A stretch of 64,000 nucleotides of DNA, from positions 1 through 64,000 of the forward strand of contig NZ_RHHB01000007.1 in the NCBI RefSeq assembly GCF_003710805.1. Direction: 5' to 3'. Origin of the DNA: Agromyces tardus. Its GTDB lineage: Bacteria > Actinomycetota > Actinomycetes > Actinomycetales > Microbacteriaceae. The position numbers and the translations under genes are program-made. This document shows positions 28,121 through 63,040 of this stretch, in pieces (within the stretch, counting starts at the first letter, position 1; the number at the start of each line of letters is the position of its first letter). A model generated the notes under the pieces. The model had not been told where the DNA came from, ran no database searches, and saw only the letters and a program-made list of their open reading frames with translations.

Positions 28121-29122
28121 CTACTTCGTGCTGAACGCGGCGTCGAAGGCGGCGGCGGGCGGGGTGATCTCAGCGAGGGCGCGCACGAAGGCGAGCGCCT
28201 CGGGCGCCCCGATCAGCCGGTCCATGCCCGCGTCCTCCCACTCGACGCTCGTCGGGCCCTCGTAGCCGATCGCGTTGAGCGCGCGGAAGAGCGGCTCCCA
28301 GCGCACGGCGCCGTGGCCGGTGGAGACGAACGTCCACCCGCGCCGCGGGTTCGCCCACGCGAGGTGGGAGCCGAGCACGCCGTTGCGACCATCGAGGTTC
28401 GTGATCGATTCCTTCACGTGCACGTGGAAGATGTGCTCGGCGAAGTCGAGCACGAACGCGATGTAGTCCAACTGCTGCCAGACGAAATGCGAGGGGTCGA
28501 AGTTGAATCCGAAGCTCGGGCGGTGCCCGATCGCGTCGAGGGTGGCTTTCGCGGTCCAGTAGTCGTACGCGATCTCCGACGGGTGCACTTCGAGCGCGAA
28601 ACGCACGCCCACCTCCTCGAACACGTCGAGGATCGGGTTCCAGCGGTCGGCGAAGTCCTGGTAGCCGCGGGCGATGAACGCGTCGGACGCCGGCGGGAAC
28701 ATCGCGACGGCCTTCCAGATCGACGATCCGGTGAAGCCGTTCACCGTCTTCACGCCCAGCTTCGCCGCCATGCGAGCGGTGTCCATGAGATCCTCCGCCG
28801 CCCGGCGACGCACGCCCTCGGGCTCGCCGTCGCCCCACACGCGGTCCGACAGGATGTCGCGGTGGCGCTCGTCGATCGGGTCGTCGCAGACGGCCTGTCC
28901 GGTGAGGTGGTTCGAGATCGCGAACACCGACAGGCCGTTGCGCTCGAGGATGTCGAGCCGCGACTGGACGTAGGCGGCGTCATCCCACCGCGAGACGTCG
29001 AGGTGATCACCCCAGCACGCGATCTCGAGGCCGTCGTAGCCCCACTCGCCGGCGAGCCGTGCGACCTCTTCGAACGGGAGGTCGGCCCACTGGCCGGTGA
29101 ACAGGGTGATGGGTCGTGCCAT
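28121..29122 (-). CDS. Sugar phosphate isomerase/epimerase-type TIM barrel protein
   Basis: A 333-residue xylose-isomerase-like TIM barrel. Likely metal ligands are the Glu in ALEVHPSE, the Asp in FNFDPSHF and the Glu in SVEWEDAG, with HVHVKES as a further conserved strand. It should rearrange or cleave a keto sugar using a divalent metal. AAGGAG precedes the start. It is the last gene of the operon containing C-glycoside deglycosidase alpha and beta genes and a Gfo/Idh dehydrogenase. A role in processing the 3-keto sugar or its dehydrated product is likely. It is distinct from the CGD alpha subunits, lacking their GYEIHAP and DFSSTMH motifs. Confidence 0.82.
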
Positions 29123-29133
29123 TGCTCTCTCCT

Positions 29134-30339
29134 TCAGGTGGATGCCGGGACGCTCACGGCGACGCGAACCCAGGACGATTCGTTCTCGGCACTGCGCTCG
29201 ACCGCGTCGAGCACGCGCTGCACCGAGAGGCCCTCCGCGAAGCTCGGGTGCGGGTCGCTTCCCTCGGCCACGGCAGTGACGAAGTCGACGACCTGGTGGC
29301 TGAAGCCGTGCTCGTAGCCGAGCATGTGGCCGGGCGGCCACCATGCCGCGACGTACGGATGCCGCGCCTCGGTGACGAGGATCTTCGTGAAGCCCTGGCG
29401 GTCGTCCGGCGTCGTCCGATCGTAGAACCGCAGGCTGTTGAGGTCTTCGAGGTCGAACGCGAGAGCGCCCATGTCGCCGGACACCTCGAGGGTCAGGGCG
29501 TTCTTGCGACCGGTGGCGAAACGGGTGGCCTCGAACGACACGAGCGCGCCGCTCGAGAGGCGACCGGTGAAGATCGCGACGTCGTCCACGGTGACTTCGC
29601 CGTACCCCTCGGCGGCCACGCCGGACAGGCCGGAACCCGAACCGAGCAGCGGCCGCTCCTTGACGATCGTGTCGATCGTGCCCGAGACGGCGTCGACGGT
29701 CTGCCCGGTGACGAACTGCGTCATGTCGATGATGTGCGCGCCGATGTCGCCCAGCGCGCCGGAACCGGCGTGCTCCTTCTGCAGCCGCCACGCGAGCGGC
29801 ATCTGCGGGTCGACGAGCCAGTCCTGCCGGTACGCCGCGCGCACCTGCTGGACCGTGCCCACGACGCCTTCGGCGATGAGGTCGCGCAGGAAGGTCACCG
29901 CCGGCACGCGACGGTACGTGAAGCCCACCATGGCGCGGATGCCGCGGGCGGCGGCGCGGGCAGCGGCATCCGCCATCGCCTCGGCCTCGTCGACGGTGTT
30001 CGCGAGGGGCTTCTCGCACAGCACGTGCTTGCCGGCCTCGAGCGCGGCGATCGCGATCTCGGCGTGGGAGTCGCCGGGGGTGACGATGTCGACGAGGTCG
30101 ATGTCGTCGCGCGCGATGACCTCGCGCCAGTCGGTGGCCGACTCGGCCCAGCCCCACTTCGCCGCGGCATCGGCCGTCGCCGTCGCGTTGCGGCCCACGA
30201 CGACGGTCATCTCGATGTCGGCCGGCAGGTCGAACACGTGGGGCGCGGTGCGCCACCCCTGCGAGTGCGTCGCCCCCATGAAGCCGTGGCCGATCATGGC
30301 GACCCGCAGCACCGGCCGCTGAGCCTGTCGAACGGTCAT
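29134..30339 (-). CDS. Gfo/Idh/MocA-family sugar dehydrogenase
   Basis: A 401-residue NAD(P)-dependent oxidoreductase with a Rossmann start [11 protein letters not shown], the family motif CEKPLANT, and a C-terminal domain with [13 protein letters not shown] that carries catalytic Asp and His. In the gut C-glycoside system, DgpA of this family oxidises the sugar C3 hydroxyl before C-C cleavage. This gene sits between a CGD beta subunit gene (ATGA overlap) and an isomerase gene, which makes a matching role, or reduction of the freed 3-keto sugar, likely. Its first codons coincide with an interspersed repeat (30316-30335), so the N-terminus TVRQAQRPV derives from it. Confidence 0.88.
30316..30335. 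repeat. Interspersed CTGAGCCTGTCGAA repeat, copy within coding sequence
   Basis: CCGCTGAGCCTGTCGAACGG is a member of the short, partly palindromic CTGAGCnTGTCGAA family that is scattered through many bacterial genomes. Here it overlaps codons 2-8 of the Gfo/Idh gene, close to the stop of the upstream beta-subunit gene. A second copy lies at 32568-32586, at another gene junction in the same operon. Confidence 0.6.
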
Positions 30340-30752
30340 GCCAGCACGACCTCGCGCTCGACCGGGACGCGGTTGGTGACGTACCGGCCGGGCCCGCCGT
30401 CGACGCCCGGCATGATCTGCATGTACAGCAGGCGCATCGTGAGCACGACCTCGACGGTGAGCTTCTCGCCCGCCGCCGGTGCATCGTCGAGGGAGATCAC
30501 GACGTCGGGCCGGTCGGCGACGAACCAGAGCGTCTCCCACTGGTCGGGCAGCTCCTCGATGCGGTAGCTGCGGCCCTGGAGCTCGAAGCGCAGGCGGTCC
30601 TTGGGGACCTCCACGCCGTTGACGGATGCCGCGACGTCGTCGACGGCCGACAGCCAGAGGCTGCGGTACCAGGGGAGCTGGACCGAGACGGCGATGCCGT
30701 CGGCGGTGCGACGGACGTCCTGCTCGGAGAAGAGGGAATTGTGCGTGGCCAT
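30336..30752 (-). CDS. C-glycoside deglycosidase beta subunit (DUF6379-like) 1
   Basis: A 138-residue beta-sandwich protein. Its marks are [19 protein letters not shown], a central [17 protein letters not shown] and late [22 protein letters not shown]. These are shared with the N-terminal halves of the fused CGD proteins at 51-53 kb and match the small CarC/DgpB-type partner subunits. In known complexes it packs on the TIM-barrel alpha subunit and completes the active site. It lies after an NTF2-like gene and before the Gfo/Idh gene (ATGA overlap). Its alpha partner is likely the 346-residue protein encoded at 31519-32559. Confidence 0.82.
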
Positions 30753-30761: not shown

Positions 30762-31526
30762 CTACTTGAAGGTGTCTGCGAAGGTGTCGTGCGCGACCGG
30801 CGGCACCGGTTCGAGCTGCTGCACCGTCGTGGGGCTGTACGGGTGGTTCGTGCTGGGCACCGGCTCATCGGCGGGCGGCATGAACACCGGCTTGCCGTCG
30901 TCGCCGAAGTACATGAGGTCGAGGTCGAAGGCGCCCTGGTTCTTCAGGCCGAAGCTGACCCAGTTCTCCTCGAAGGGCGCGCGGGCGAGCTCGTAGCAGC
31001 GGAACTTCCAGAACCTCCACTCGCCGTCCTGCTTGAGGAAGTCGATGGCGTACTTGCACCAGACCCAGTGCGCCCAGACCTTCTTGCCGAGGACCTCGTC
31101 CGGCGAGTACATGTCGGGGAACGCCTCGGCCACCGTCGGGTCGGTGAGTCCCGACTCGGTGCCGGCCATGAGCCAGACGCCCTTCGCGGTCTCGCCGTCG
31201 GCGGCGACCTCGATGACCGGGGTGGTGGTCGCGTGGAGGATGAGCTTGCCCTCGGGGCTCGGCCGGTCGCGGTGGTAGCGGGTCACGCTCTCCCACGTGG
31301 TGTACTGGCCGGCGTTCGTGTAGCGGGCCCGGATGCCGGGCGTGCCCTCGGCGACCCACAGCGGGATGATCTGCTCGTCCTGGAACGCGTTGTGCAGGTA
31401 CATGTAGCGGTTGAAGAGGTTCTCGACCGCCCCGCGGTCGGCAGCGTGCTGCGCGAGTGCGCGCACGGCGCCCACCTCGTCGCGCAGCGCTGCCAGCTCG
31501 GCCTGGAGTTCGGCGATCTCAGACAA
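30762..31526 (-). CDS. NTF2/SnoaL-like protein in the C-glycoside operon
   Basis: A 254-residue protein. An N-terminal coiled-coil-like helix ([23 protein letters not shown]) is followed by a SnoaL/NTF2-like cone ([50 protein letters not shown]). A C-terminal tail of about 60 residues includes FMPPADEP. No catalytic motif is certain. The start is probably TTG at 31526, overlapping the alpha-subunit gene by eight bases, so translation should be coupled. NTF2 folds often host dehydratases, isomerases or aromatic binding sites. Placement between CGD alpha and beta genes suggests a third component or an enzyme acting on the same substrate. Function unknown. Confidence 0.65.
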
Positions 31527-32588: not shown

Positions 32589-33692
32589 TCAGCCGCGGAC
32601 GGGCTGCGCGAGGTGGGAATCGAGGATGCGGCGTGCTTCCGCGGCATCCGTGATCATGCGGGAGCCCGCCGCCTCGGCGGCCGAGCGCTGCACGGCCTGC
32701 TCGCCGCGGATGATGTCGAAGGGGCTCTGCCAGTGGTTCCAGTGCCAGCCCTCGTACTCGCTCGAGATCGCACCCGAGTAACCCTGCTCGACGAGCAGGC
32801 GCACGAGGTCGCGCACGGGAACCGAGGGCTCCTCCCCCGTCTCGTCGATGCCGAAGAACTTGCCGTGCACGTGCCGGATCCACGGCATGATCTCGAGCCA
32901 GTCGTCGACCCGGGCCGGGCCGAACAGGCCGGTGCCGTTGATGCCGAAGTCGATGCCGAGGTCGGGGCGGCCGTTCTGGGCGGCGAGGCCGATGAACGCG
33001 CCGAACCGCTGTCCGTGCTCGGCCTGGTCGGCGGGCGGGCCCTGCTCGTAGAACGTGTTCCACAGGTCGACCACCTTGGCGAGCAGCTCGTCCGACGCGC
33101 CACGACGGCGGTACGCCTCGAGCAGCGACGGGGCGAAGCCCGTGACGGTCGCGCCCCAGTCCATCGTGAAGCCGAGGAAGGGGGACCCGACCTGCTCGTA
33201 CCGGTCGCGCAGCGCGAGGATGCGCGGGTGGGAGGCGTACTGGTCGGCGTGCACCTCGAGCGCGAGCGTCACGCCGTGCGCTTCGGCGATCGGGGCGAGC
33301 GCCTCCATCGAGTCGGGCGTGATCGAGATCTGCACGCGCGCGATCGGGAAGCCGAGCTGTGCCGCCGCCTTGATCTGCAGGGTCATGTACTCGATGAGCT
33401 CGTCCTGCGTGAGCAGGCGATCGCGATGGATGCCGATGTCGGCGTTCACCGCGAGCGACGTCGTGACCAGCCCGGTCTCCGCGACCAGGTCGCGGAACCA
33501 GCCGGCGTACGCGTCGTCGACGGCCGGGAAGCCGCGGAAGCTCGAGAAGCCGATGATCTCCAGTCCGGGGCCGTAGCCCTCGGCGGCGACCTTGCGGACC
33601 AATCCCTCGAGGTCGTACTCCCGGGCGTGGAAGGCGCGCGTGAAGCTGTAGAGCGTGACGCCCTGGATGGGGGTGCCGAGTGCGCGGGTCAT
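32589..33692 (-). CDS. C-glycoside deglycosidase alpha-like subunit (TIM barrel) 2
   Basis: A 367-residue TIM barrel related to the preceding alpha subunit but clearly diverged. Metal-site candidates are LALEVHAD (E146, H148), GFTMDWGA (D178), RHVHGKFFGIDET (H274, H276) and ISSEYEGWHW (E312). The DFSSTMH stretch of the canonical form is replaced by DWGATVTG, so substrate fit probably differs. It overlaps the upstream beta-subunit gene by four bases (ATGA), making a natural beta-alpha pair. It probably acts on a different aglycone or sugar, or as an isomerase of the 3-keto product. Confidence 0.8.
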   Translation of the reverse strand: MTRALGTPIQGVTLYSFTRAFHAREYDLEGLVRKVAAEGYGPGLEIIGFSSFRGFPAVDDAYAGWFRDLVAETGLVTTSLAVNADIGIHRDRLLTQDELIEYMTLQIKAAAQLGFPIARVQISITPDSMEALAPIAEAHGVTLALEVHADQYASHPRILALRDRYEQVGSPFLGFTMDWGATVTGFAPSLLEAYRRRGASDELLAKVVDLWNTFYEQGPPADQAEHGQRFGAFIGLAAQNGRPDLGIDFGINGTGLFGPARVDDWLEIMPWIRHVHGKFFGIDETGEEPSVPVRDLVRLLVEQGYSGAISSEYEGWHWNHWQSPFDIIRGEQAVQRSAAEAAGSRMITDAAEARRILDSHLAQPVRG

Positions 33693-34087
33693 GCCTGCAC
33701 CGCCTTCATGGTCTTGCGGTCGTGCTCTTCGATGTGCAGCGTCTCGCCGTCGCCGATGATGATGTACGGGATGTAGAGCTTCAGGTCGACATCGACCTGG
33801 TGCTCGGCGTCATCCGCCTCGACGGGCAGGTCGCCCGACAGCACCGCGGAGTCGGTGGGGAACCACCACTCGCCGGTCTCGTCGACCAATTCGTCGAAGC
33901 CGAACTCGCGGCCGTTCATCTGCCAGCGCAGCGACTCCGTGGGCGCCTCGACCCCGTCGATGCGCAGCTTCGCACCGGCGATGCAGGACCCGGGGAGCGC
34001 CCGGTACCAGGGCAGGCGGACCTCGACGGCGGAGCGTGCGCCGGTGGTCGTGAGCGTTCCCTGCTCGATGATGCGATCGGGGATCAC
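33689..34087 (-). CDS. C-glycoside deglycosidase beta subunit (DUF6379-like) 2
   Basis: A 132-residue beta protein with AVEVRLPWYRALPGSCIAGAKL, a central REFGFDELVDETGEWWFPTD and late KLYIPYIIIGDGETLHIEEHDR. It aligns by eye with the beta domains at 30.3, 52.6 and 54.0 kb. The GTG start at 34087 is preferred because GGAGG stands five bases before it. It is the first gene of the seven-gene operon and is coupled to alpha-like subunit 2 by ATGA overlap. The C-terminal His/Glu/Asp-rich tail differs from that of beta 1. A 17-codon reading frame ends exactly across its start codon. Confidence 0.8.
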   Translation of the reverse strand: MIPDRIIEQGTLTTTGARSAVEVRLPWYRALPGSCIAGAKLRIDGVEAPTESLRWQMNGREFGFDELVDETGEWWFPTDSAVLSGDLPVEADDAEHQVDVDLKLYIPYIIIGDGETLHIEEHDRKTMKAVQA

Positions 34088-34137
34088 GAGAGCCTCCAGG
34101 TTCTGTGCCGACGCAGTCGGCGGGACATCTTTGTCAT
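34084..34137 (-). other. Possible 17-residue leader peptide overlapping the beta 2 start
   Basis: An ATG at 34137 opens a 17-codon frame rich in arginine (MTKMSRRLRRHRTWRLS) whose TGA stop overlaps the GTG start of the beta-subunit gene. The promoter-like elements just upstream would place the transcript start within a few bases of this ATG, so it could be read as a leaderless coding start that couples translation to the next gene. It may be chance; nothing but position supports it. Confidence 0.25.
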
Positions 34138-34179: not shown

Positions 34180-35706
34180 CTAGACGGAACTCGCGAGTTC
34201 CTGCGCGATGGCCCGTGCGCCTCGGACCGCGAGCGCGACGCCGGTCAGCGTCGGGTTGCACGCCGTCGCCGTGGGGATCACGCCGTTGCCGGCGACGTAC
34301 ACCCCGGGTGCGGCCCAGACCTGGCTGTCGGGGCCGCAGACGCTGGAGCCGTCATCCGTCTCGCCCATGCGCACGGTGCCCTGGTAGTGCAGCGACGACC
34401 CGAGCGGCATCGTGAACGGCCGCTCGTCGAGTGGCTCGCCGACGGCCTTGCCCAGGCGCACGATCTCGTCGCCGGCCCGGGAGATGGTCTCGTGATCCTT
34501 CGGCGTGAGCGTGTAGTGGATCGTCATCGCGGGCATGCCGTAGGCGTCGGTTTCGGCCTCCGAGAACTCCACCCGGTCGGACTCCTGCAGGTCCTTCGCG
34601 CAGAAGAGCCCCAGGCCGACGATGGACCCGGGCGCGACCGGGTCGTCCTCGGCGAGCGGCACCGGCGAGGCGTCCAGCTGCATGATCTGCCCGTGGAAGG
34701 GCATGTCGTCGGTGAACGGGACCCAGCTGACGCCGGACTGTTCGCTCAACCCGGTGGCACCGGAGCTGTCGGCGGCATCGGCGACGACATCCCGGATCCG
34801 CGAAGCGAAGACGATCTGCGCCTGGTCGTTCAGGTAGCGCCCGAGCGCAGTCGGACGGATTCCGGACGCCCACAGCAACTGGGGCGTGCGCAGCGCATCG
34901 GCGGCGACCACGACGAAGTGAGCGCGCACGGCGTGCGTCTCGCCGGTGCGCCGGTCGGTGACCTCGACTCCCGCAGCTCGGCCGGCCTCGAGCAGCACCC
35001 GCGTGACGAGGCTCTCGTCGAACAGCGTGAAGTTCCCGTTCCCACGGGTCACGTCGCCGAGCACGACGTCCGATCCCGACCAGACGAGGCGGCCGTCGTC
35101 GCGACGGTGCACCGCGAGCGGCATCTTCTGCACGCGCGTCTCCGGTGAGCGGCCCTCGTCGATCGCGGCGACGAGGCGATCCCGCACGAGCTGCGCATAC
35201 GGCGACGCGTCGAAGGCATCGCTGGTGACGCCCAGGAGCCGCTCGCCTTCGCCCAGCAGCTCGTCGAGGTCGGACAGGAAGGCGATGCGCTCGCTCCCGC
35301 CAGGTCGCGGACACGCGCCGGTCCAGTGCGCGGCCATGCCGCCGACGTTGCTCGACATCGCCGCCACGGGCAGCCCGTCTTCGCCCTCGACCTGGTAGCC
35401 CGTGTCGAGCAGGAACGTGCCGGGGCGGCCCCGACGCTCTCCGCTCTTGACGGCACCGGGGTTGGCGACCGTCGCCGCCCCCGCCCCAGGGCCGGCGGAC
35501 AGTTCCTGTGCTCGAGCCCGCTCCGCCGGATCGGCGATGTTCTTCACGTGCGCCCCGGGAGGGTCGGACACGGTCGGGCCGACCTCGAACATCGCGATGG
35601 TCGCGCCGGGTGCCTGCTCGCTCAGGACCCGGGCGTAGGTCGCGCCCGCCGGTCCGCTGCCGACGATCGCGACGTCGACCGCCTCGGGGTAGGTCCGCAC
35701 GCTCAT
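34180..35706 (-). CDS. GMC-type FAD sugar oxidase (CarA/glycoside 3-oxidase-like) 1
   Basis: A 508-residue flavoprotein with the dinucleotide motif VGSGPAG (residues 15-21), NVGGMAAHWTGACPRP (flavin region like pyranose oxidases), SLHYQGTVRMG (catalytic His440) and ATACNPTLT (Asn484). This His-Asn pair and the overall pattern are those of pyranose oxidase-like CarA enzymes of soil actinobacteria. Those oxidise the C3 hydroxyl of glucose in C-glycosides so that CGD can act. No signal peptide is present. It overlaps the TIM-barrel gene upstream (ATGA) and lies 92 bases before the CGD operon. Confidence 0.85.
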   Translation of the reverse strand: MSVRTYPEAVDVAIVGSGPAGATYARVLSEQAPGATIAMFEVGPTVSDPPGAHVKNIADPAERARAQELSAGPGAGAATVANPGAVKSGERRGRPGTFLLDTGYQVEGEDGLPVAAMSSNVGGMAAHWTGACPRPGGSERIAFLSDLDELLGEGERLLGVTSDAFDASPYAQLVRDRLVAAIDEGRSPETRVQKMPLAVHRRDDGRLVWSGSDVVLGDVTRGNGNFTLFDESLVTRVLLEAGRAAGVEVTDRRTGETHAVRAHFVVVAADALRTPQLLWASGIRPTALGRYLNDQAQIVFASRIRDVVADAADSSGATGLSEQSGVSWVPFTDDMPFHGQIMQLDASPVPLAEDDPVAPGSIVGLGLFCAKDLQESDRVEFSEAETDAYGMPAMTIHYTLTPKDHETISRAGDEIVRLGKAVGEPLDERPFTMPLGSSLHYQGTVRMGETDDGSSVCGPDSQVWAAPGVYVAGNGVIPTATACNPTLTGVALAVRGARAIAQELASSV

Positions 35707-36897: not shown

Positions 36898-37734
36898 TCA
36901 GCCCTTCAGCCCGCCGGCGAAGCCCTGGATGAACCGCTTCTGGGCGAACATGTAGAACAGCAGGATCGGGATCATCGAGATGATCACGACGGCGAAGATC
37001 TTGTTCCACGCCGAGACGAGCCCGCCGACGTACGTGTACATCGCGACGGGCAGCGTCTGCGTCTCCGAGCCGCCGAGGAAGATCAGCGAGTTGAAGAAGT
37101 CGTTCCAGACGATGAGGCCCGCGAGGATCGCGACCGTTCCCGTCGCGGGCGACATGAGCGGCAGCACGACCCGGAAGAAGGTCTGCGTCGGCGTGGCCCC
37201 GTCGATGACCGCGGCCTCCTCGTATTCGGTCGTCATGCCCCGGAAGAAGCTCGCATAGAGGAACACGGAGAGCGGAAGCAGGATGCCGATCCACAGCAGG
37301 ATCATGCCGAGCGCATTGCCCGTGAGCCCGACGGTGCGCGCGCCGATGTAGAGCGGCACCGTGCCGAGCTGGGCGGGCAGGATGATCGCGATGAGCACGA
37401 GGTAGTAGGTGAGGGTGCTCCACGTGCGGGTGCGGCGCGCGATGACGTAGGCGGCGATCGAGCCGAGCAGCACGAGGCCGAAGATCGCCCCGGCCGTGAT
37501 GATGACGCTGTTGACGATGCTCATCGGGATGCTGTTGCGGCCCGTGGTGGTGAGCACCTCGACGAACGCGCCGAAGTCGACCGTGGTCGGCGGCGCGATC
37601 GCGCTCGTGGTCAGCGCCTCCTGGTCGGTCTTGAGCGAGGTGACGACGAGGATGTAGAGCGGCAGCAGGCCGATGAGCGTGACGAGCCAGACGAGCAGTT
37701 CCCGGAACGCGGTGAGCTTGGTATAGCGGAACAT
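36898..37734 (-). CDS. CUT1 ABC sugar transporter permease (MalG-like)
   Basis: A 278-residue protein with about six membrane helices and the EAA loop EEAAVIDGATPTQTFFRVVLPLM that contacts the ATPase. LVVWLVTLIGLLPLYILVVTSLK at the N-terminus and the IQGFAGGLKG end are typical of MalG-type permeases. It partners the upstream permease (gap four bases). No ATPase gene is present nearby; a shared MsiK-like ATPase encoded elsewhere is the usual solution in actinobacteria. The likely cargo is a plant glycoside or the sugar part of one. Confidence 0.9.
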   Translation of the reverse strand: MFRYTKLTAFRELLVWLVTLIGLLPLYILVVTSLKTDQEALTTSAIAPPTTVDFGAFVEVLTTTGRNSIPMSIVNSVIITAGAIFGLVLLGSIAAYVIARRTRTWSTLTYYLVLIAIILPAQLGTVPLYIGARTVGLTGNALGMILLWIGILLPLSVFLYASFFRGMTTEYEEAAVIDGATPTQTFFRVVLPLMSPATGTVAILAGLIVWNDFFNSLIFLGGSETQTLPVAMYTYVGGLVSAWNKIFAVVIISMIPILLFYMFAQKRFIQGFAGGLKG

Positions 37735-37738
37735 GGCG

Positions 37739-38698
37739 TCAGTCCTTCCCGAGCGAGCGGTCGCGCGTCACGTACTGCTGCAGGATCGCGAACGCGAGGA
37801 TGATCACGGTGAGCACGAGCGCGAGCGCCGACCCGAAGCCGAACTGCCCGAGCGAGAACGCCTGCTTGTACACCTCGGTCGCCAGGGTCTCGGTCGCCCC
37901 CGCTGGACCGCCGGCCGTGAGGGCCAGGATCTGGTCGAAGATGCGCAGGCCCTGGATGATGCCGAGCGTGGTCGCGATCGCGATCGACGGGCGGATGGCG
38001 GGCACGGTGACGTGCCAGAACCGGCCCCAGATGCCCGCGCCGTCGAGCGCCGCGGCCTCCTCGACCTCGACGGGCACGCTCGCGAGGCCCGCGAGGTAGA
38101 TCACCATCGTGAAGCCGGTCTGCTGCCAGACGACGGTGATCAGGATCGCCCAGATCGACCAGGTCGGGTCGGCCAGCCAGACCTTCTGCAGCTCCTCGAG
38201 GCCGAGGAAGCCGAGCAGGCCGTTGAGGGGCCCGTTGAACTGGAAGATGAACTTCCAGACGTAGGCCACCGCGAGGGGGCTCAGCACCACCGGCATGAAC
38301 AGGAGGGTGCGCAGGAGGTAACGCGTCTTGAGCATGCGGTTGATCGCGAGTGCGTAGAGCAGCCCGAAGACGTTCGTGAGGATCACCGAGGCGAACGCGA
38401 GGAAGAGCGTGTTCCAGACGGCGCCGAGCAGCAGCGGATCCTGGAAGATGCGGACGAAGTTGTCGAGGCCGACGAAGTCCCAATCGCCCAGGCCGGTCCA
38501 GTTCGTGAAGGCGAAGAAGCCGCCCGTGAGCGTCGCGACGTAGTGCACGCCGATCACGAGGGCGATCGCCGGAAGGGCCCACCACCAGTGGCCGAACGTG
38601 ATCAGGGGCTTGCGGCCCCTGCGACGTGGCGGCGGCGTGTTCCGTGCGTCGGGCGGCACGGTGATGGAGCGGGTGCTCTCCTGCATCGTCACGGTCAT
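37739..38698 (-). CDS. CUT1 ABC sugar transporter permease (MalF-like)
   Basis: A 319-residue permease with a basic cytoplasmic N-terminal tail (PPPRRRGRKP), about six helices and the EAA loop EVEEAAALDGAGIWGRFWHVTVPAI. It is the first gene of the minus-strand operon: MalF-like, MalG-like, SnoaL, TIM barrel, GMC oxidase. The ATG at 38698 is chosen; an in-frame ATG at 38713 and a GTG at 38782 are alternatives. The matching solute-binding protein is most likely the plus-strand lipoprotein at 42214, separated by the divergent GH106 gene. Confidence 0.88.
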   Translation of the reverse strand: MTVTMQESTRSITVPPDARNTPPPRRRGRKPLITFGHWWWALPAIALVIGVHYVATLTGGFFAFTNWTGLGDWDFVGLDNFVRIFQDPLLLGAVWNTLFLAFASVILTNVFGLLYALAINRMLKTRYLLRTLLFMPVVLSPLAVAYVWKFIFQFNGPLNGLLGFLGLEELQKVWLADPTWSIWAILITVVWQQTGFTMVIYLAGLASVPVEVEEAAALDGAGIWGRFWHVTVPAIRPSIAIATTLGIIQGLRIFDQILALTAGGPAGATETLATEVYKQAFSLGQFGFGSALALVLTVIILAFAILQQYVTRDRSLGKD

Positions 38699-48502: not shown

Positions 48503-48503
48503 G

Positions 48504-54120: not shown

Positions 54121-55722
54121 TCAGCCGGCGACGGATGCCGCGGCATCCGCTCGGGCCGAGAGCTGCTCGACCGCCTTGCGCGCCCCACGCACCGCGATCG
54201 CCACGCTCATGAGCGTCGGGTTCATCGCCGTCGCGGTGGGGATGAGGGCGTTGCCGCCCACGACGAGGTTCTCGACGCCCCAGACGCGCGACCACGGGTC
54301 GGCGACCGAGGTGCCGTCGTCGGCCGGGCCCATGCGCATCGTGCCCTGGTAGTGCAGGCTCGACCCGTTCGGCAGCAGGCGCGGCTCGGCGACGAACGCG
54401 CCGAGCGCCTCGCCGGCCCGCCGCAGCCGCACGGTGGCCACCTCGATCTCGGCGCGCTCCGCGTCGGTGAGCTCGTACTCGATCGTCATGTTCGGGAAGC
54501 CGCGGTAGTCGGGCTCGGCGTCGTCGAACGTGACCGCGTCCTCGTAGCGCGGGAACTTGCGCATGCCGTAGCCCATGTTCACGTAGCCCCAGCGATTGCG
54601 GGCGAGGGGCGCGTCCTCGGGCATCGGGAACGGGGTCGTCTCGGAGTACATGACCTGCAGCGAGAACGGGTGGTCGGGCTCCGAGAACGGGATGCGGTTG
54701 ACGGCCGCGACGGGGTCGGCCGCGTTCGTCGCGCGTCGGGCGAGCTCCTCGTCGAGCTGCTCCTCGGTCGCGAAGCGGCCCATCTTCTCGGCGTCGAGGG
54801 CCACGGTCGAGATCACGACGGGGTGCTCGGTCAGGTAGTGCCCGAGCGCCGCCGGGCGGATGCCCGACGCCCACAGCAGCTGCGGCGAACGGAACGCGTC
54901 GGCGGCCACCACCACGAGGTCGGCGGGCACGAACGAGGTCTGCTTCGTGCGCAGGTCCTCCACCGTGACGCCCGTCACCACGTCGCCGTCGCGCTCGATG
55001 CGGCGCACGAGCGTGAGGTCGCGCAACTCGAACCGCTCGGCGAGCGGGTTGCCCGGCTCGATCAGTGGCCCGAGCACGGCGTCGGCGCCGGCCCAGCGCA
55101 TCGTGCCGTCGGGCTGCGGGTCGCCGGCGACGGGCAGCGTGCTCGGTCCGTAGCCCTCGGGCAGCTCGCCGGCGAACTCCTCCTCGAGCAGCGAGCGGAT
55201 GCCGCCGCCCACCGCCGAGTCCGCGAAGGCCGCGCTCTGCGCGTGCAGCAGGCCCTCGGCGACGACGATGAGGTCGTCCCACTCGGCGTCGTCGATGAAC
55301 GAGACCTTCTCGCTGAACGACGGACGCGGGATGGCGCATGTCCAGTGCGCCCCCTGCCCGCCGACGTTGGTGGCGCCCGCCGCGGCGGGGAAGGTCGGCG
55401 CATGAGCCGAGCCCTCGCCGCCGAAGTCGAGCAGATGGGTGCCCTGACGGGCGGTGAACATGCCCTCGACGACCGTGCCGGCGGGGAGGCCGAGCGACTC
55501 GCGGAACCGCCCCGCCTGTGGGCCCTGCGAGAGCTCGCGGGCGCGGGCCTTCTCGTCGGGGTCGGCGATGTTGCGCACGCTTTCGCCGGGCCGCTCGGTG
55601 AGCTGCGGGCCGGCCTCGAACATGACGACGCGCGCGTCGGGGAGCCCCTCGAGCAGGAGGCGGGCGTACGCGGAGCCGATCGGTCCGCTGCCGACGACGG
55701 CGATGGTGGGGTGGTGGGACAT
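54121..55722 (-). CDS. GMC-type FAD sugar oxidase (CarA/glycoside 3-oxidase-like) 2
   Basis: A 533-residue flavoprotein with VGSGPIG (residues 10-16), NVGGQGAHWTCAIPRPSFSEK, SLHYQGTMRMG (catalytic His457) and ATAMNPTLM (Asn501). It follows the same plan as the oxidase at 34.2 kb but is longer, with an insertion around the substrate loop (MYSETTPFPMPEDAP). GAGGAG lies six bases before the ATG. It is followed by two fused CGD genes, the order expected if its 3-oxo product is passed to them. Pyranose oxidase-like enzymes reduce oxygen or another acceptor; which one is used here is unknown. Confidence 0.87.
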   Translation of the reverse strand: MSHHPTIAVVGSGPIGSAYARLLLEGLPDARVVMFEAGPQLTERPGESVRNIADPDEKARARELSQGPQAGRFRESLGLPAGTVVEGMFTARQGTHLLDFGGEGSAHAPTFPAAAGATNVGGQGAHWTCAIPRPSFSEKVSFIDDAEWDDLIVVAEGLLHAQSAAFADSAVGGGIRSLLEEEFAGELPEGYGPSTLPVAGDPQPDGTMRWAGADAVLGPLIEPGNPLAERFELRDLTLVRRIERDGDVVTGVTVEDLRTKQTSFVPADLVVVAADAFRSPQLLWASGIRPAALGHYLTEHPVVISTVALDAEKMGRFATEEQLDEELARRATNAADPVAAVNRIPFSEPDHPFSLQVMYSETTPFPMPEDAPLARNRWGYVNMGYGMRKFPRYEDAVTFDDAEPDYRGFPNMTIEYELTDAERAEIEVATVRLRRAGEALGAFVAEPRLLPNGSSLHYQGTMRMGPADDGTSVADPWSRVWGVENLVVGGNALIPTATAMNPTLMSVAIAVRGARKAVEQLSARADAAASVAG

Positions 55723-57380: not shown

Positions 57381-58172
57381 TCAGGTGCGGGCCGCGGCGA
57401 TGGCGGATGCCGCGTGCGCGTCCTGCAGCAGGGCGGCGAGGTCGCCCGGCATCCGCTGCTCGGCCAGCGCGTCGATCGCGCGACGCAGGGACGCACGCTC
57501 ACCCGCCTCGAACACGGCGGGCGCCACGAGTCGGCCGCGCGCCGTGCTCGTCGTGAGCTCGCACCGGCCGATCGGCTCGTCGAGCTCGAACTCGGTGGTC
57601 GTCTCGCCGAGCGCCTGCACGCGCAGCAGCGAGCCCTCCGGGCGGGTCACGGCGCTCAGCATCGACCCGACGACACGACCGTCGGCGCTCGAGCGCAGCA
57701 GCGCGGTGCCGCCATCGGCCGTGTGCGCCGCCGACGCGACGACCAGGTCGGTGTCGGCGAGTGCGCGCATCCAGCCGACCGCGTCGCGAAGGGTCGCAGC
57801 GAGGTCGCCCGCGGACGCCCGGCACTCCGCGACGATGACCCGCGGGGGCACGCCCTCGCGGTGCGCGACCGCGAGGGCGACGAGGTCCTCGCGCAGCCGC
57901 GCACGGTGCACGACGACGGGCACGCCGACCTCGGCGGCGAGGTCGGCGAGTGCGGCGACCGCGTCGAGCGGCACGTCGTGCGGCTCGGCCGCCACGATCG
58001 CGGCGGCGCCGGCGTCGATCGCGCCCGCCGCGGCATCCCACCAGCGGGCCGCCCCGTCGACCACGACGATCGCCCCGGCCGCCTCGTCGGCGGCCTGGGC
58101 GCTCAGCGGCAGGCCCGCGACGGCGACGCGGTACCCGGCGAGCTCCGCGACGACGGGGATGCGGCGCGTCAC
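57381..58172 (-). CDS. Uncharacterised protein paired with a Gfo/Idh dehydrogenase
   Basis: A 263-residue, Ala/Val-rich alpha/beta protein that I do not recognise. The first 150 residues alternate hydrophobic strands and Ala-rich helices (VAVAGLPLS, GAAAIVAAEPHDVP, VPVVVHRARLRED, VIVAECRA), suggesting a Rossmann-like fold, and could be a dehydrogenase fragment without a clear glycine motif. The second half is more beta-like (GSLLRVQALGETTTEFELDEP), reminiscent of the C-terminal half of Gfo/Idh proteins. It overlaps the Gfo/Idh gene by four bases (ATGA), so they are made together and may form a complex. Confidence 0.6.
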   Translation of the reverse strand: MTRRIPVVAELAGYRVAVAGLPLSAQAADEAAGAIVVVDGAARWWDAAAGAIDAGAAAIVAAEPHDVPLDAVAALADLAAEVGVPVVVHRARLREDLVALAVAHREGVPPRVIVAECRASAGDLAATLRDAVGWMRALADTDLVVASAAHTADGGTALLRSSADGRVVGSMLSAVTRPEGSLLRVQALGETTTEFELDEPIGRCELTTSTARGRLVAPAVFEAGERASLRRAIDALAEQRMPGDLAALLQDAHAASAIAAART

Positions 58173-59215
58173 GACCGTGCCCCCGCCCGGATCGCGTCCG
58201 CCGCGGCATCCGCGAGGCCGACCGCGAAGAGGGCGTCATCGAGCACCTCGTGGTACTCCATCGTCGCCGAGCCGTCGAGCAGGTCGGCGAGCACCCGCCA
58301 CTCGCGCAGGTAGCCGTCGTCGGCATCGCGCCGATAGGTGGTGGTGCGCAGGTCGCCGCGGCGCACGCGCACCGTCGCGCTGCCCGCGTGCACGAACGAG
58401 GGCGGGAACTCGACGTCCACCCGGTCGGTCGACGTGCCGATCGTGAGCCGCCACACCGGATCGGGGCCGTCGGGGAGCATGACGGCGGTCAGCAGCACGC
58501 GCACGCCGCTCGAGCGGAAGCCCACGGTGTAGCCGATGGGCGGAACGGCCGCGGCGAAGTCGACGCCCTCGAAGTCGGGGGCCAGGTCGCGCACGGCGGG
58601 CAGGTCGTGCACGGCGAGGCCGAGCACGAGCTGGCGCACGACCGCGGCCGCCACGTGCGGATCGGCGAGGTCGGGCGCCCCGCGGGATGATGCGCCGGCC
58701 GGCCCGGGAGCGAGTTCCGTGACGGCGGCGTGGAAGCGGCCGTTCGGCGGCAGGGCCACGGTGGCCGAGATCGTGCGCACGTCGGACTCGAGGGCGACGA
58801 GGTGGTGCTTGGCGCGATCCCAGGCCTCGTCGTAGAAGTGATTGGTGGCGACGAGGAGCGGGATGCCCGCCTGCCGGCAGGCATCGACCACCGATCGCGC
58901 CTCCTCCGCCGTGGTCGCGAGCGGCTTCTCGCACAGGATCGCGCGCACGCCCGCGGCGATGCTCTCGTGGATCTGCCGTGCGTGCTCGGCCGGCGGGCTG
59001 CAGATCGCGACGACCTCGACAGCGGGATCGGCGAGGAGCGCGGCGGTGCCCTGCGAGGTCGCGGCGCCGACGCCGGCGGCGAGCGCGGCGGCGCGGCCGC
59101 TGCCGTGGTCGGCGACGTGCACCACGGTGAAGCGATCGCCCAGCCTCGCCAGCGTGGGCAGGTGCAGTGCACCGACCCCCGGCCCGGCCCCGATGATCCC
59201 GACGCCCCACGGCAT
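58169..59215 (-). CDS. Gfo/Idh/MocA-family oxidoreductase 2
   Basis: A 348-residue oxidoreductase with GVGIIGAGPGVGALHLPTL as cofactor motif, EVVAICSPPAEHARQ and the family CEKPLATT (catalytic Lys). The C-terminal sheet domain has GLAVHDLPAVRDL with a His-Asp pair. The ATG at 59215 has GGAGG seven bases upstream and is favoured over one at 59236. It is divergent from the ROK regulator and coupled to the unknown gene downstream. It may oxidise sugar C3 in glycosides or reduce the free 3-keto sugar. Confidence 0.85.
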   Translation of the reverse strand: MPWGVGIIGAGPGVGALHLPTLARLGDRFTVVHVADHGSGRAAALAAGVGAATSQGTAALLADPAVEVVAICSPPAEHARQIHESIAAGVRAILCEKPLATTAEEARSVVDACRQAGIPLLVATNHFYDEAWDRAKHHLVALESDVRTISATVALPPNGRFHAAVTELAPGPAGASSRGAPDLADPHVAAAVVRQLVLGLAVHDLPAVRDLAPDFEGVDFAAAVPPIGYTVGFRSSGVRVLLTAVMLPDGPDPVWRLTIGTSTDRVDVEFPPSFVHAGSATVRVRRGDLRTTTYRRDADDGYLREWRVLADLLDGSATMEYHEVLDDALFAVGLADAAADAIRAGARS

Positions 59216-59262
59216 CCGACCACCTCCACGCGTCATCGCCCGAAACTTGCTACTTCCGCCTC

Positions 59263-59299
59263 GACTATACAAAAGTTGGAGCGCTTCGTGGCTATAGTC
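59263..59299. promoter_or_regulatory. Inverted repeat GACTATA...TATAGTC in the ROK divergent region
   Basis: GACTATA (59263-59269) and TATAGTC (59293-59299) form a perfect 7-bp inverted repeat with a 23-base spacer, midway between the divergent Gfo/Idh and ROK genes. On the minus strand TATAGTC gives a -10-like patch. This is the natural place for the ROK protein to bind. GTCAGAATCGG follows at 59333-59343, just before the ROK start. Confidence 0.45.
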
Positions 59300-59346
59300 G
59301 GCACGAAATCGGCCTCGAATCGAGCTCGTTGTGTCAGAATCGGTGC

Positions 59347-60615
59347 ATGACACGCGAGTCAACCCTCCGATTCGGGGCCCAGACCGACGAGGTGACGAGC
59401 CTCCTGCGCATCGTCAACATGGTGCGCACCGGCGAGGCCGCCACCCGGCCCGAGATCGGGCGGGTCACCGGCCTCGGCCGCGGCGTCGTGACGCAGCGCG
59501 TCGACCAGGCGATCGAGATGGGCTTCCTCGCCGACGGCGAGTACGGTCCGTCCTCCGGCGGGCGCGCGCCGCGCACGCTCCGGTTCCGCTCGGAGCAGGG
59601 CCGCATCATCGTGTGCGCGCTCGGCGCCCTGCACATCCGCGTCGGCATCGCCTCGCTCGACGGCGACATCGTCGAGCATGCGCATCGCGCGTGGGACATC
59701 GCGCACGGGCCCGCCCAGACGATCGACACGGCGCTCGAGATGCTCGACGAACTCCTGGCCCGCCACGAGGACGTGCCCGTCTGGGGCGTGGCCGTCGGCA
59801 TCCCGGGACCCGTCGACTTCGAGACCGGGCGCCCCGTCGCCCCGCCCATCATGCCCGGCTGGAACGGCTTCGACGTGCGCCGCCGCTTCGAGCAGCGCTT
59901 CGACGCCCCCACCTGGGTCGACAACGACGTGAACCTGCTCGCGTTCAGCGAGCGCTCCCACCGCCACGAGGAGGCGCTCGACCTCATCTTCTGCAAGGTC
60001 GGCTCCGGCATCGGCGCCGGCCTGCTCTCGCACGGGCGCATCCACCGCGGGGCCAACGGTGCGGCCGGCGACATCGGCCACGTGCGCGTGCGCGACTCCG
60101 AGACCGTGTGCCGGTGCGGCAAGATCGGATGCCTCGAGGCCGAGGCCGGCGGCTGGGCGCTCGTGCGCGACGCCGAGCAGGCCGTGTCCGAGGGCGCGGG
60201 CGGTGCGCTCGCCCGGCTGGTGGAGTCGGGCGAGCAGATCACGCCCGAGGCGATCTCGCTCGCCGCGGTCGACGGCGACGCCCTCGCGATCTCGCTCATC
60301 CAGCGTTCCGCGCGGCTCGTCGGCGAGTCGATCGCGGCGCTCGTCAACATGTTCAACCCCGCGGTCATCGTGATCGGCGGCGCGGTGTCGGCGGCGGGCG
60401 AGGTCTTCCTCGCCGAGGTGCGGCAGCGCGTCTACGAGCTCTCGCTGCCGCTCGCCACGCGCGACCTCAGCATCGTGCGGTCGCACGGCGACGAGAAGGA
60501 GCCACTGCGGGGCGGTGCCGAGATGGTGCGCGAGCAGCTCTTCGAGACGACGTTCCCGCGCTGGTTCGCCGAGGGCCGGCCGCTCATCCGCGACGTGATG
60601 CCCGAGGCATCCTGA
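59347..60615 (+). CDS. ROK-family transcriptional regulator
   Basis: A 422-residue ROK repressor type. The N-terminal winged HTH covers about residues 15-80 (VRTGEAATRPEIGRVTGLGRGVVTQRVDQ). The sugar-kinase-like domain shows DNDVNLLAFSE, GSGIGAGLLSHGRIHRGANGAAGDIGHV and the zinc motif CRCGKIGCLE. Such proteins sense sugars or sugar phosphates and repress catabolic genes. The ATG at 59347 has no clear ribosome site, so it could be leaderless. It is divergent from the Gfo/Idh pair and followed by ThuA and a fused CGD, its probable targets. Confidence 0.9.
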   Translation: MTRESTLRFGAQTDEVTSLLRIVNMVRTGEAATRPEIGRVTGLGRGVVTQRVDQAIEMGFLADGEYGPSSGGRAPRTLRFRSEQGRIIVCALGALHIRVGIASLDGDIVEHAHRAWDIAHGPAQTIDTALEMLDELLARHEDVPVWGVAVGIPGPVDFETGRPVAPPIMPGWNGFDVRRRFEQRFDAPTWVDNDVNLLAFSERSHRHEEALDLIFCKVGSGIGAGLLSHGRIHRGANGAAGDIGHVRVRDSETVCRCGKIGCLEAEAGGWALVRDAEQAVSEGAGGALARLVESGEQITPEAISLAAVDGDALAISLIQRSARLVGESIAALVNMFNPAVIVIGGAVSAAGEVFLAEVRQRVYELSLPLATRDLSIVRSHGDEKEPLRGGAEMVREQLFETTFPRWFAEGRPLIRDVMPEAS

Positions 60616-61557: not shown

Positions 61558-61564
61558 GCCGCGC

Positions 61565-63040
61565 ATGACCCTCAGCGCGCTGCGCGACGACGCGCTCTCG
61601 GCCACTGCCGACGGGTTCGAGCTGCGGCTCGGCCTCCCGTGGATCCGGTCGCTGCCCCTCGACTGCGTCGACTCGCTCGAGGTGGCGGTCGATGGCGAGC
61701 GGGTCGATCCGCTCGCCGTCGTGCTCGGCGACCGCGTGGTCGATCCCGGTGCCCTCGCGCACGAGGGCGGCTGGTGGTTCCTGCAAGACCGTCTGGTGCT
61801 CCGGGGCGAGCGGATGCTGCAGCCCGGCGCGCACGACGTGGCCGTCTCGTTCCGGCTCCGCATCCCGTACCTGCAGGCCGGCCCCGACGGCCCGCTCACC
61901 CTGCCCTTCCTCGTCGAGCGCACCCTCGAGCTCGGTGCGACGCCTGCGGGTCGAGGAGCCCGCAGCGCGCCTCGAGACCCCCACGAAGCGGGACTTCAGC
62001 ACGCGGATGCTGCGGCCACCGCCGCCGTCTCGCCTGCTGCTCTCCCCTCGACCTGGACCCTCGCAGCGAGCGCCTTCAACTGGACCCCCGAGGTGATCCG
62101 CGCCGAGCAGCCGGCGCCCGACATCGCCGTCGGCATCGTGACGGCCGGGGTCGCACCCGTCATCGAGGTCGAACCGGGCCAGTTGTGGCGCTCCTTCCCC
62201 GTGCCGGCCGACGCAGAGGTCGACGCCCTGCGGCGCGGACTCGACGCCGCCGGCGGCAGGGTGAGCATCGTCGGGGCGAGCCTCGACGACTGGGTCGGTC
62301 CGACGCAGCGACGCAGTGACGACGACCGACTCGCGTTCCTGCTCCCCCAACTGCACGCCGCACGTCGCGTCGGCGCGGCGGGCGTGCGCCTGCCGATCGG
62401 CCAGGCGGGCGAGCCGCTCCTGCGGCGGGTCGTGCCGACACTGCACGAACTCGACCTCGTGCTCTTCGAGGAGATCCAGGGCCAGCAGACCCCTGATTCC
62501 ACGCCCACCGCGGCGGCCGTCGACACGATCGCCGGCCTCGACGACCCGCGCGTTCGCGTGCTCGTCGACATCAGCATGCTCATGCCCGCGCTGCCGTCGA
62601 GCTACCTCGAGCAGCTCGCGGGCGCAGGCCTGCCGGGCGATCTGCTGGCCCGCCTCACCGACGAGTGGCGCGACCCCGCGACGACGGGCGTCGTCGTCGA
62701 CGTGCTCCGGTCGGGCGCCGTGCCGCCCGCCATCCACACGATGTACATGAACCTGCTGGTGCGCTTCGGACGCTCCGACGCGGGCGTGCTGCGCGACATC
62801 CTGCCCTTGGTCGGCGCGTTCCACCTCAAGTTCTGGGATCTCGACGACACCGACGGTCGCGTCTCCGCGCCCATCCGCGACCTCGGCGCACTCCTCGCGC
62901 CCACCGGCTTCGCCGGCACGCTGTGCAGCGAATGGGGCGGCCACGAGTGGCTCCTCGACGCGGATGCCGCGGACATGACCCGGCGGCATCTCGCTCTCGC
63001 GCGTCAGGCCCTCGCCGAGGGTGCGGCCGCCGCGGCCTGA
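61565..63040 (+). CDS. Single-chain C-glycoside deglycosidase-like (beta-alpha fusion) 3
   Basis: A 491-residue fusion. The beta domain lies at about 12-124 (LRLGLPWIRSLPLDCVDSL, RLRIPYLQAGPDGP). A long disordered Ala/Pro/Arg linker follows (about 125-165). A diverged TIM barrel starts near residue 188. Metal-site candidates are E303 in FEEIQ, D335 in VLVDIS, H420 in FHLKFWDLDD and E456 in CSEWGGHEW. The EIH motif seen in every other alpha domain here is EIQ (Q305), so its His is missing. The barrel also lacks the DFSSTMH stretch. It may be a CGD of altered chemistry. It follows ThuA by seven bases. The first copy of a 94-bp tandem duplication begins in its last codons. Confidence 0.75.
   Translation: MTLSALRDDALSATADGFELRLGLPWIRSLPLDCVDSLEVAVDGERVDPLAVVLGDRVVDPGALAHEGGWWFLQDRLVLRGERMLQPGAHDVAVSFRLRIPYLQAGPDGPLTLPFLVERTLELGATPAGRGARSAPRDPHEAGLQHADAAATAAVSPAALPSTWTLAASAFNWTPEVIRAEQPAPDIAVGIVTAGVAPVIEVEPGQLWRSFPVPADAEVDALRRGLDAAGGRVSIVGASLDDWVGPTQRRSDDDRLAFLLPQLHAARRVGAAGVRLPIGQAGEPLLRRVVPTLHELDLVLFEEIQGQQTPDSTPTAAAVDTIAGLDDPRVRVLVDISMLMPALPSSYLEQLAGAGLPGDLLARLTDEWRDPATTGVVVDVLRSGAVPPAIHTMYMNLLVRFGRSDAGVLRDILPLVGAFHLKFWDLDDTDGRVSAPIRDLGALLAPTGFAGTLCSEWGGHEWLLDADAADMTRRHLALARQALAEGAAAAA

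What the first reader, a model, noticed from the sequence alone, without database searches (positions are those of the whole stretch)
28121..63040. Expanded C-glycoside deglycosylation island with five alpha-type domains and five beta-type domains
The region encodes two free beta subunits, two free alpha subunits, three beta-alpha fusions, two CarA-like GMC oxidases and two Gfo/Idh dehydrogenases, spread over at least three operons. Known systems (CarA/B/C, DgpA/B/C) have one oxidase and one or two alpha-beta pairs. Such multiplication suggests a set of enzymes each tuned to a different aryl C-glycoside or sugar, or extra steps of the pathway not yet described.
Basis: partly seen in the sequence, partly recalled or inferred. 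Interest (0 to 1): 0.88.

Follow-up and report, generated by a model that had tools for sequence, protein, structure and literature searches.

The report
Conserved five-enzyme C-glycoside degradation island
A soil bacterium, probably an Agromyces, carries in one stretch of DNA five versions of a rare enzyme that cuts sugars off plant pigments at a carbon-carbon bond; relatives keep the same set, and one of the five has lost the residues known to make that cut, so it probably does something else.

Summary
The region holds five C-glycoside deglycosidase (CGD) sets (two free beta/alpha pairs, three beta-alpha fusions), two CarA-family oxidases, two Gfo/Idh dehydrogenases, a protein of the 2-hydroxy-3-keto-glucal hydratase family, transporters and glycosidases.

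It is not a local expansion. Nine of 10 CGD-bearing Agromyces genomes and 57 of 57 CGD-bearing Microbacterium genomes carry three or more beta domains. Each of the five classes forms its own clade. Multi-copy CGDs are published (Catenibacillus decagia, six clusters) and a fused CGD is in the PDB (8QRZ/8UN2). Four sets are therefore new members of known kinds.

The surprise is the fifth, fus3 (61565-63040). It keeps all five metal ligands, but beta-Tyr39 is Ile, catalytic His149 is Gln and Glu307 is Gly in 62 of 62 other genomes with it. It is under purifying selection, was found only in CGD-bearing genomes, and travels with a truncated Gfo/Idh-like protein. "Five enzymes, each for a different C-glycoside" is plausible for four and doubtful for the fifth. 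No activity was tested.

The parts
28121..29122 (-). AP1, 2-hydroxy-3-keto-glucal hydratase family (AP_endonuc_2)
   Evidence: 8ro4_A 'hydratase' 129.8 bits, 2zds_A 502 bits
29134..30339 (-). gfo1, Gfo/Idh dehydrogenase, candidate 3-keto-glucose reductase
   Evidence: levoglucosan dehydrogenase model 354.7 bits, below its 650 cut-off; GxGxxG and EKP present
30336..30752 (-). beta1, free CGD beta subunit
   Evidence: PF19906 53.9 bits; Tyr39 kept
30762..31526 (-). SnoaL_4 protein, role unknown
   Evidence: PF13577 59 bits
31519..32559 (-). AP2, free CGD alpha subunit, AgCGD2 type
   Evidence: 7dnm_A 633 bits; all seven residues kept
32589..33692 (-). AP3, free CGD alpha subunit, second type
   Evidence: 7dnm_A 193 bits; all seven residues kept
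33689..34090 (-). beta2, free CGD beta subunit (start approximate)
   Evidence: PF19906 52.3 bits; Tyr39 kept
34180..35706 (-). gmc1, CarA/PsG3Ox-type C-glycoside 3-oxidase
   Evidence: 7dve_A 843 bits, 7qf8_A 841 bits
35703..36497 (-). AP4, hydroxypyruvate-isomerase-like protein, role unknown
   Evidence: TIGR03234 155 bits, below the 353 cut-off
36898..38782 (-). two ABC sugar permeases
   Evidence: PF00528
38821..45767 (+). GH106, ABC solute-binding protein, GH3
45819..51317 (-). GH43, GDSL and alpha/beta hydrolases, GH35-like protein
51209..52684 (-). fus2, fused beta-alpha CGD, AgCGD2-like
   Evidence: 7dnm_A 448 bits, 7dnm_B 97.5 bits; all eight residues kept
52747..54051 (-). fus1, fused beta-alpha CGD, relative of the M. 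testaceum CGD 8QRZ
   Evidence: 809 bits over residues 1-431; H269 is Gln as in 8QRZ
54121..55722 (-). gmc2, second oxidase of the POx/CGOx family
   Evidence: 8qve 368 bits, 7dve 338 bits
55743..57299 (-). MFS transporter
   Evidence: PF07690 170 bits
57381..58172 (-). x263, truncated Gfo/Idh-like fold without GxGxxG or EKP
58169..59362 (-). gfo2, Gfo/Idh dehydrogenase (true start probably near 59212)
   Evidence: PF01408 78.5 bits; nucleotide and EKP motifs present
59329..60615 (+). ROK-family regulator or kinase
   Evidence: PF00480 185 bits
60682..61557 (+). ThuA-family protein
   Evidence: PF06283 93 bits
61565..63040 (+). fus3, fused beta-alpha CGD paralogue with intact metal site and replaced catalytic residues

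Best explanation
The region is a conserved Microbacteriaceae catabolic island for plant aryl C-glycosides. Imported, partly trimmed glycosides are oxidised at C3 of the sugar by gmc1 or gmc2. The 3-keto sugar is split from the aglycone by one of four competent metal-dependent CGDs (beta1/AP2, beta2/AP3, fus1, fus2) through beta-elimination. The released 2-hydroxy-3-keto-glucal is hydrated by AP1 and reduced to glucose by gfo1. The CGD classes split before the species did, which fits division of labour by aglycone and attachment position. The fifth set, fus3, keeps the metal site but has lost the catalytic His, its Glu partner and the aglycone-activating Tyr, so it is probably not an ordinary C-C-cleaving CGD; most likely it acts on another keto-sugar intermediate, with the gfo2/x263/ROK genes beside it. 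Shown here: gene content, families, residues, synteny, co-occurrence. Inferred: every activity, the order of steps, the role of fus3.
For: Families and nearest solved structures. Catalytic residues intact in AP2 (14 scorable rows of 15), AP3 (18 of 18) and fus2 (30 of 32); fus1 intact except H269 to Gln, as in the solved 8QRZ. Beta Tyr39 in 34 of 34, 29 of 29, 10 of 10 and 18 of 18 rows of the four classes. Five clades each for alpha and beta. All five classes in 7 of 7 relatives whose islands were read. gmc2 orthologues 12-15 kb from fus3 in 10 of 10 Microbacterium genomes tested. fus3: Ile/Gln/Gly with all five metal ligands in 62 of 62 other genomes; pN/pS 0.24-0.57.
Against: No enzyme was assayed. 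gfo1 and AP4 lie below the curated cut-offs of their best models. His-to-Ala and Glu-to-Ala mutants of PuCGD kept 10.4% and 49.8% activity (PMC8563793), so the lost residues need not abolish cleavage in fus3. A published O-glycoside route shows CGDs can also act on O-glycosides (PMC13273386), so C-glycosides may not be the only substrates. One 99%-complete and one 100%-complete Microbacterium genome have CGDs but no fus3 match (G890, G956), so fus3 is dispensable.
Confidence: 0.75

Rival explanations
1. All five sets cut C-glycosides, each for a different aglycone or sugar; fus3 uses other residues for acid/base catalysis.
For: fus3 keeps the fold and all five metal ligands. Mutants of PuCGD without the His or Glu keep some activity (PMC8563793).
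Against: In the published MiCGD the same His and Glu mutants fall to 1.8 and 1.9%, and AtOGE without its His is dead (PMC10628242, passages). Tyr39, called critical for C-C cleavage (PMC13273386), is Ile in 62 of 62.
Confidence: 0.15
2. fus3 is a catalytically dead paralogue with a structural or sensing role, for instance reporting keto-sugars to the neighbouring ROK protein.
For: Three non-metal residues lost in 62 of 62; it stands with ROK and with x263, itself a Gfo/Idh-like fold without the nucleotide motif; it evolves faster than the other sets.
Against: Five metal ligands are kept without exception, which a dead protein would hardly need. No interaction or regulation was tested.
Confidence: 0.3
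3. The multiplicity is mere redundancy from recent tandem duplication in this lineage.
For: AP2 and fus2 are sister classes (alpha 54% identical, SH-aLRT 86; beta1 and fus2 beta 43%), so at least that pair arose by duplication.
Against: Window alpha domains are 19-54% identical to each other and each class is its own clade across genera. Of 57 CGDB-bearing Microbacterium genomes none has only one or two.
Confidence: 0.05

Closest known systems
CarA/CarB/CarC of Microbacterium sp. 5-2b; AgCGD1, AgCGD2, MtCGD (PMC8563793, parts 1-4 of 8 read)
   Same: Same oxidase family, same beta plus TIM-barrel alpha CGD, same residues in four of the five sets; AP2 is closest to AgCGD2
   Different: One or two free pairs described per strain there; here two pairs and three fusions, one with replaced catalytic residues
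Fused CGD of Microbacterium testaceum, PDB 8QRZ/8UN2 (titles only; paper not seen)
   Same: Same beta-alpha fusion as fus1 (809 bits over 431 residues), same Gln at position 269
   Different: Known to me as a single structure, not as part of a five-class set
Gene cluster of Pseudarthrobacter siccitolerans around PsG3Ox (PMC10646112, passages)
   Same: Oxidase with two alpha-type and two beta-type genes, like the gmc1 operon
   Different: No fusions or second oxidase mentioned in the passages seen
dgpBC clusters of Catenibacillus decagia (PMC11170127, passages)
   Same: Several CGD clusters in one genome (six)
   Different: Gut Bacillota, separately located DgpA-type oxidoreductases
Levoglucosan pathway LgdA/B1/B2/C (PMC7676230, abstract and passages)
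   Same: Oxidation, elimination, hydration, reduction via 2-hydroxy-3-keto-glucal; hydratase beside a Gfo/Idh
   Different: Other substrate and eliminase; NAD-dependent oxidation

Membership tests
C-glycoside deglycosidase (CGD), for beta1/AP2, beta2/AP3, fus1, fus2 | CGDB beta domain plus AP_endonuc_2 alpha domain | tested here: met
   for fus2 the alpha Pfam score is 26.0, under the 31.1 cut-off, but phmmer gives 448 bits
C-glycoside deglycosidase (CGD), for beta1/AP2, beta2/AP3, fus1, fus2 | Metal ligands E147, D179, H269, K271, E305; His149; Glu307; beta Tyr39 | tested here: met
   fus1 has Gln at 269, as does the solved 8QRZ
C-glycoside deglycosidase (CGD), for beta1/AP2, beta2/AP3, fus1, fus2 | Cleaves 3-keto-C-glycosides | not testable with these tools
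   needs assay
CGD, for fus3 | Beta-alpha architecture and fold | tested here: met
   phmmer; model pLDDT 88.8, pTM 0.87; 7dnm_A TMt 0.85
CGD, for fus3 | Five metal ligands | tested here: met
   62 of 62 other genomes
CGD, for fus3 | Catalytic His149, Glu307 and beta Tyr39 | tested here: not met
   Gln, Gly, Ile in 62 of 62 other genomes and in the window
POx/CGOx GMC oxidases (CarA type) | GMC domains and closest solved relatives CarA, PsG3Ox, DaCGO-like 8qve | tested here: met
   gmc1 843 bits to 7dve; gmc2 338-368 bits; clade of gmc2 not tested
2-hydroxy-3-keto-glucal hydratase, for AP1 | Sequence relation to a characterised hydratase | tested here: met
   8ro4_A 129.8 bits over residues 17-315
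2-hydroxy-3-keto-glucal hydratase, for AP1 | Hydratase activity | not testable with these tools
   needs assay
Gfo/Idh/MocA dehydrogenase, for x263 | GxGxxG nucleotide motif and EKP motif (motifs recalled, from no call) | tested here: not met
   absent in 12 of 12 rows, though the model resembles Gfo/Idh folds

The most novel reading that the evidence does not exclude
fus3 is a new metal-dependent enzyme built on the CGD beta-alpha frame that does not cut the C-C bond. It could be an isomerase that returns 2-keto-C-glycosides, the form into which 3-keto-C-glycosides slip and which PuCGE does not cleave (PMC13273386), to the cleavable 3-keto form by a metal-assisted hydride shift. That would explain the lost acid/base with the kept metal, and why it is found only beside other CGDs.
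Probability: 0.2. Interest if true: 0.75.

Novelty: new variant of a known kind. Interest (0 to 1): 0.55.

Why it matters
CGDs are the described bacterial route for breaking aryl C-glycosides, which resist ordinary glycosidases and matter for plant-carbon turnover and for the fate of flavonoid drugs. A set of five CGD classes and two oxidases inherited almost all-or-none in Microbacterium and Agromyces offers a natural panel for finding what sets C6, C8 and aglycone specificity. A paralogue that keeps the metal site but has replaced the three non-metal catalytic residues in every genome examined points to a step not yet described, testable with a handful of purified proteins.

Tried and rejected
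Considered and dropped: AP1 and AP4 as extra CGD alpha subunits. fus3 as a decaying pseudogene (open frame; pN/pS 0.24-0.57 in seven pairs; key residues invariant). gmc2 as an Agromyces-only oxidase: the first synteny table suggested it, but 10 of 10 Microbacterium genomes tested have a 75-81% identical copy. C6 versus C8 preference of beta2/AP3 from the Asn248/Met249 columns: searches align that stretch differently, so no claim. Promoter and terminator scan at 58000-63500: none found, about none expected.

Dropped rows and cautions: the pairs fus2 with L040, L042, L047, L049 and AP2 with L022, L035, L041, L043 are paralogue pairs and were not used. In one search one of 14 rows labelled fus3 (L057) is a distant non-orthologue with Tyr. 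In one search, 9 of 21 fus3 rows hold no alpha part, and a fragment row of L039 has Ala in the E147 column. A second, 33% identical fus3-like copy in G991 (L102) has Gln and Gly but Tyr at beta 39; it is not counted among the 62. One search warned of long branches for fus3, AP3 and fus1, so the order of the classes is not claimed. The co-occurrence counts rest on the 6-28 best first-look candidates per genome that the tool scored, and Fisher tests treat species as independent. One search's chance figure assumes independent columns. The search for a degenerate CGD in print was narrow (C-glycoside with pseudoenzyme, one irrelevant paper). (PDB codes; DUF6379) found nothing useful.
Full report
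WHAT IS THERE. The window most likely comes from an Agromyces genome: the best named matches to fus1 are five Agromyces records at 91-95% identity; the own assembly has 4.06 Mb in 91 contigs. Genomes of the own genus are therefore called Agromyces here. The genus of G290 is called Microbacterium because contig lengths of two of its genomes (907679 and 81970) equal those of named Microbacterium records. A search of the own genome with the CGD beta family PF19906 gave five matches, all in this window. Gene models come from open frames, family hits and alignments. The first operon runs right to left from 38782 to 28121: two ABC permeases, a SnoaL protein, AP4, gmc1, beta2, AP3, AP2, a SnoaL_4 protein, beta1, gfo1, AP1, with gaps of -8 to 77 bases. 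A second minus-strand run holds gfo2, x263, MFS, gmc2, fus1, fus2, with gaps of -4 to 81 bases. On the plus strand stand ROK, ThuA and fus3. Between fus2 and the permeases lie GH106, a solute-binding protein, GH3, GH43, GDSL and alpha/beta hydrolases and a GH35-like protein.

WHAT EACH SET IS. AP2 is an AgCGD2-type alpha subunit (7dnm_A, 633 bits). fus2 is a fused relative (448 bits alpha, 97.5 beta; 54% alpha identity to AP2; 43% beta identity to beta1). AP3 with beta2 is another clade (193 bits to 7dnm_A). fus1 is close to a fused CGD of Microbacterium testaceum whose structure is in the PDB (8qrz/8un2, 809 bits over 431 residues; titles; no paper on it was found). fus3 is the most distant: 89 bits to 7dnm_A and 41 bits to a beta chain, no Pfam hit for its alpha half. 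gmc1 matches 7dve and 7qf8 at 843 and 841 bits (I recall these as CarA and PsG3Ox); gmc2 is a more distant member (368 and 338 bits). AP1 matches a solved 2-hydroxy-3-keto-glucal hydratase at 130 bits. gfo1's best NCBIfam model is levoglucosan dehydrogenase, 355 bits against a cut-off of 650.

PATHWAY. With published chemistry this gives oxidation, elimination, hydration and reduction: levoglucosan (PMC7676230, abstract and passages); phlorizin and C-glycosides (PMC10628242, passages); the four-step summary in PMC13273386 (part 1 of 3). All activities here are inferred from families and neighbours.

ACTIVE SITES. AgCGD2 numbering could be used because the phmmer alignment puts E147, H149, D179, H269, K271, E305 and E307 at the numbers given in PMC8563793 (parts 1-4 of 8; alignment). 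Scorable rows of AP2 (14 of 15), AP3 (18 of 18) and fus2 (30 of 32) keep all seven; fus1 rows keep six, with Gln for H269 in 32 of 34, as in 8qrz. Beta Tyr39 (PuCGE numbering, called critical in PMC13273386) maps to Tyr34 of fus1 without a gap. It is Tyr in 34 of 34 fus1, 29 of 29 fus2, 10 of 10 beta1 and 18 of 18 beta2 rows. In fus3 it is Ile, H149 is Gln and E307 is Gly, while the five metal ligands stay. Against over-reading this: in PuCGD the His and Glu mutants kept 10.4% and 49.8% activity, though in MiCGD only 1.8% and 1.9%.

HOW FIRM IS FUS3. Matches were found in 54 of 237 Microbacterium genomes and 9 of 60 Agromyces genomes, own included. Residues were read in all 62 apart from the own one: 38 loci, 24 more. 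All 62 carry Ile, Gln and Gly and all five ligands. One genome (G991) has a second, 33% identical fus3-like copy with Gln and Gly but Tyr. For the first 38, identity to the window protein is 56-79%, 94 of 404 well-covered columns are invariant, and eight given columns would all be so with chance about 7e-6 if independent; in 14 of 38 beta and alpha lie in different frames, that is as separate genes, so the fusion is not universal. pN/pS to seven orthologues is 0.24-0.57, against 0.10-0.36 for orthologue pairs of the other four. The AlphaFold2 model has mean pLDDT 88.8 and pTM 0.87, with residues 134-155 unsure. Nearest solved folds are CGDs: 7dnm_A with TMt 0.85 and rmsd 3.0; superposition on the whole M. 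testaceum fusion is poor (rmsd about 18), so the domain arrangement differs or is unsure.

DISTRIBUTION. PF19906 occurs in 16 of 396 genomes of the order and 5 of 396 of the phylum, own counted. In Microbacterium 57 of 237 have it: 3 copies in 4 genomes, 4 in 30, 5 in 21, 6 in 1, 7 in 1, none with one or two. In Agromyces 10 of 60 have it; nine have 4-6 and one has one. The family model misses some fus3 beta domains, so these are lower bounds: all seven relatives with four or more matches whose islands I read hold all five classes. fus3 was found only where PF19906 is: 54 of 57 versus 0 of 180, and 9 of 10 versus 0 of 50 (tests). It is missing in G838, G890 and G956, two of which are 99-100% complete, and in the single-copy Agromyces G015. 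In 248 genomes of the order, strong fus3 matches (694 and 749 bits) appear in two, own included; other CGDs score at most 101 bits. Outside these genera a named Pseudoclavibacter record also has it (L033, 60% identity). Five alpha and five beta classes are each one side of a branch. gmc2 orthologues stand 12-15 kb from fus3 in 10 of 10 Microbacterium genomes tested. So the set is old and inherited together, not expanded in this strain.

THE SUB-CLUSTER AROUND FUS3. In 11 of 11 fetched loci where x263 was found, gfo2, ROK and fus3 stand with it. x263 has no Pfam or NCBIfam hit. Its model (pLDDT 93.2) resembles Gfo/Idh enzymes, but 12 of 12 rows lack GxGxxG and EKP (motifs recalled). Two relatives of pathway enzymes without catalytic motifs thus sit side by side. 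Either they form a sensing or assembly device, or they have taken on a new reaction. I lean to a new reaction for fus3 because a dead protein has little reason to keep five metal ligands without exception.

AGAINST NOVELTY. Multi-copy CGDs are published for Catenibacillus decagia (PMC11170127, passages), two alpha-type and two beta-type genes beside a G3Ox for P. siccitolerans (PMC10646112, passages), two oxidases for a Microbacterium (PMC11673046, passages), and a fused CGD is in the PDB. PMC12724307 (parts 1 and 3 of 5) describes PurA/PurBC of a soil Paenarthrobacter. I did not find the five-class set as a unit or the residue-deprived member in print, but my searches were limited and the library lacks most subscription journals.

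VERDICT. Observation confirmed; interpretation partly supported. A new variant of a known kind: four new members of known CGD types plus one conserved, rewired paralogue that deserves an assay.

Noticed in passing
57381-58172 (-): x263, without Pfam or NCBIfam name, models as a truncated Gfo/Idh fold without GxGxxG or EKP and overlaps gfo2 by 4 bases; found with gfo2, ROK and fus3 in 11 of 11 loci.
   Followed up: partly
52747-54051 (-): fus1 and its relatives have Gln instead of the metal ligand His269 in 32 of 34 rows, as does the solved 8QRZ.
   Followed up: partly
26931-27953 (-): Extradiol ring-cleavage dioxygenase (catechol 2,3-dioxygenase model 245 bits, below cut-off) beside the island; copies 83-87% identical lie in loci L049, L050, L052 and L058. 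Possibly aglycone breakdown.
   Followed up: no
L027 1635-5127: In the M. trichothecenolyticum record, CoA-transferase pair, thiolase and IclR genes lie upstream of fus1, which looks like aromatic-acid catabolism next to the CGDs.
   Followed up: no
30762-31526 and 36516-36890 (-): Two SnoaL-type proteins inside the first operon, conserved in several relatives; role unknown.
   Followed up: no
18780-22459 (+): GH1 and GH78-type rhamnosidase genes about 6 kb outside the given range, fitting rhamnosylated flavonoid substrates.
   Followed up: no
L102 (G991:C8:158000-160800): A second, 33% identical fus3-like copy with Gln149 and Gly307 but Tyr at beta 39, in the Microbacterium genome with seven CGDB matches.
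   Followed up: partly
G585:C1:677547-681261: Four CGDB domains within 4 kb in another family of the phylum; and five in G259 of the same order. Other multi-copy sets exist.
   Followed up: no
24797-26168 (+): Two overlapping open frames both match RibD_C.
   Followed up: no
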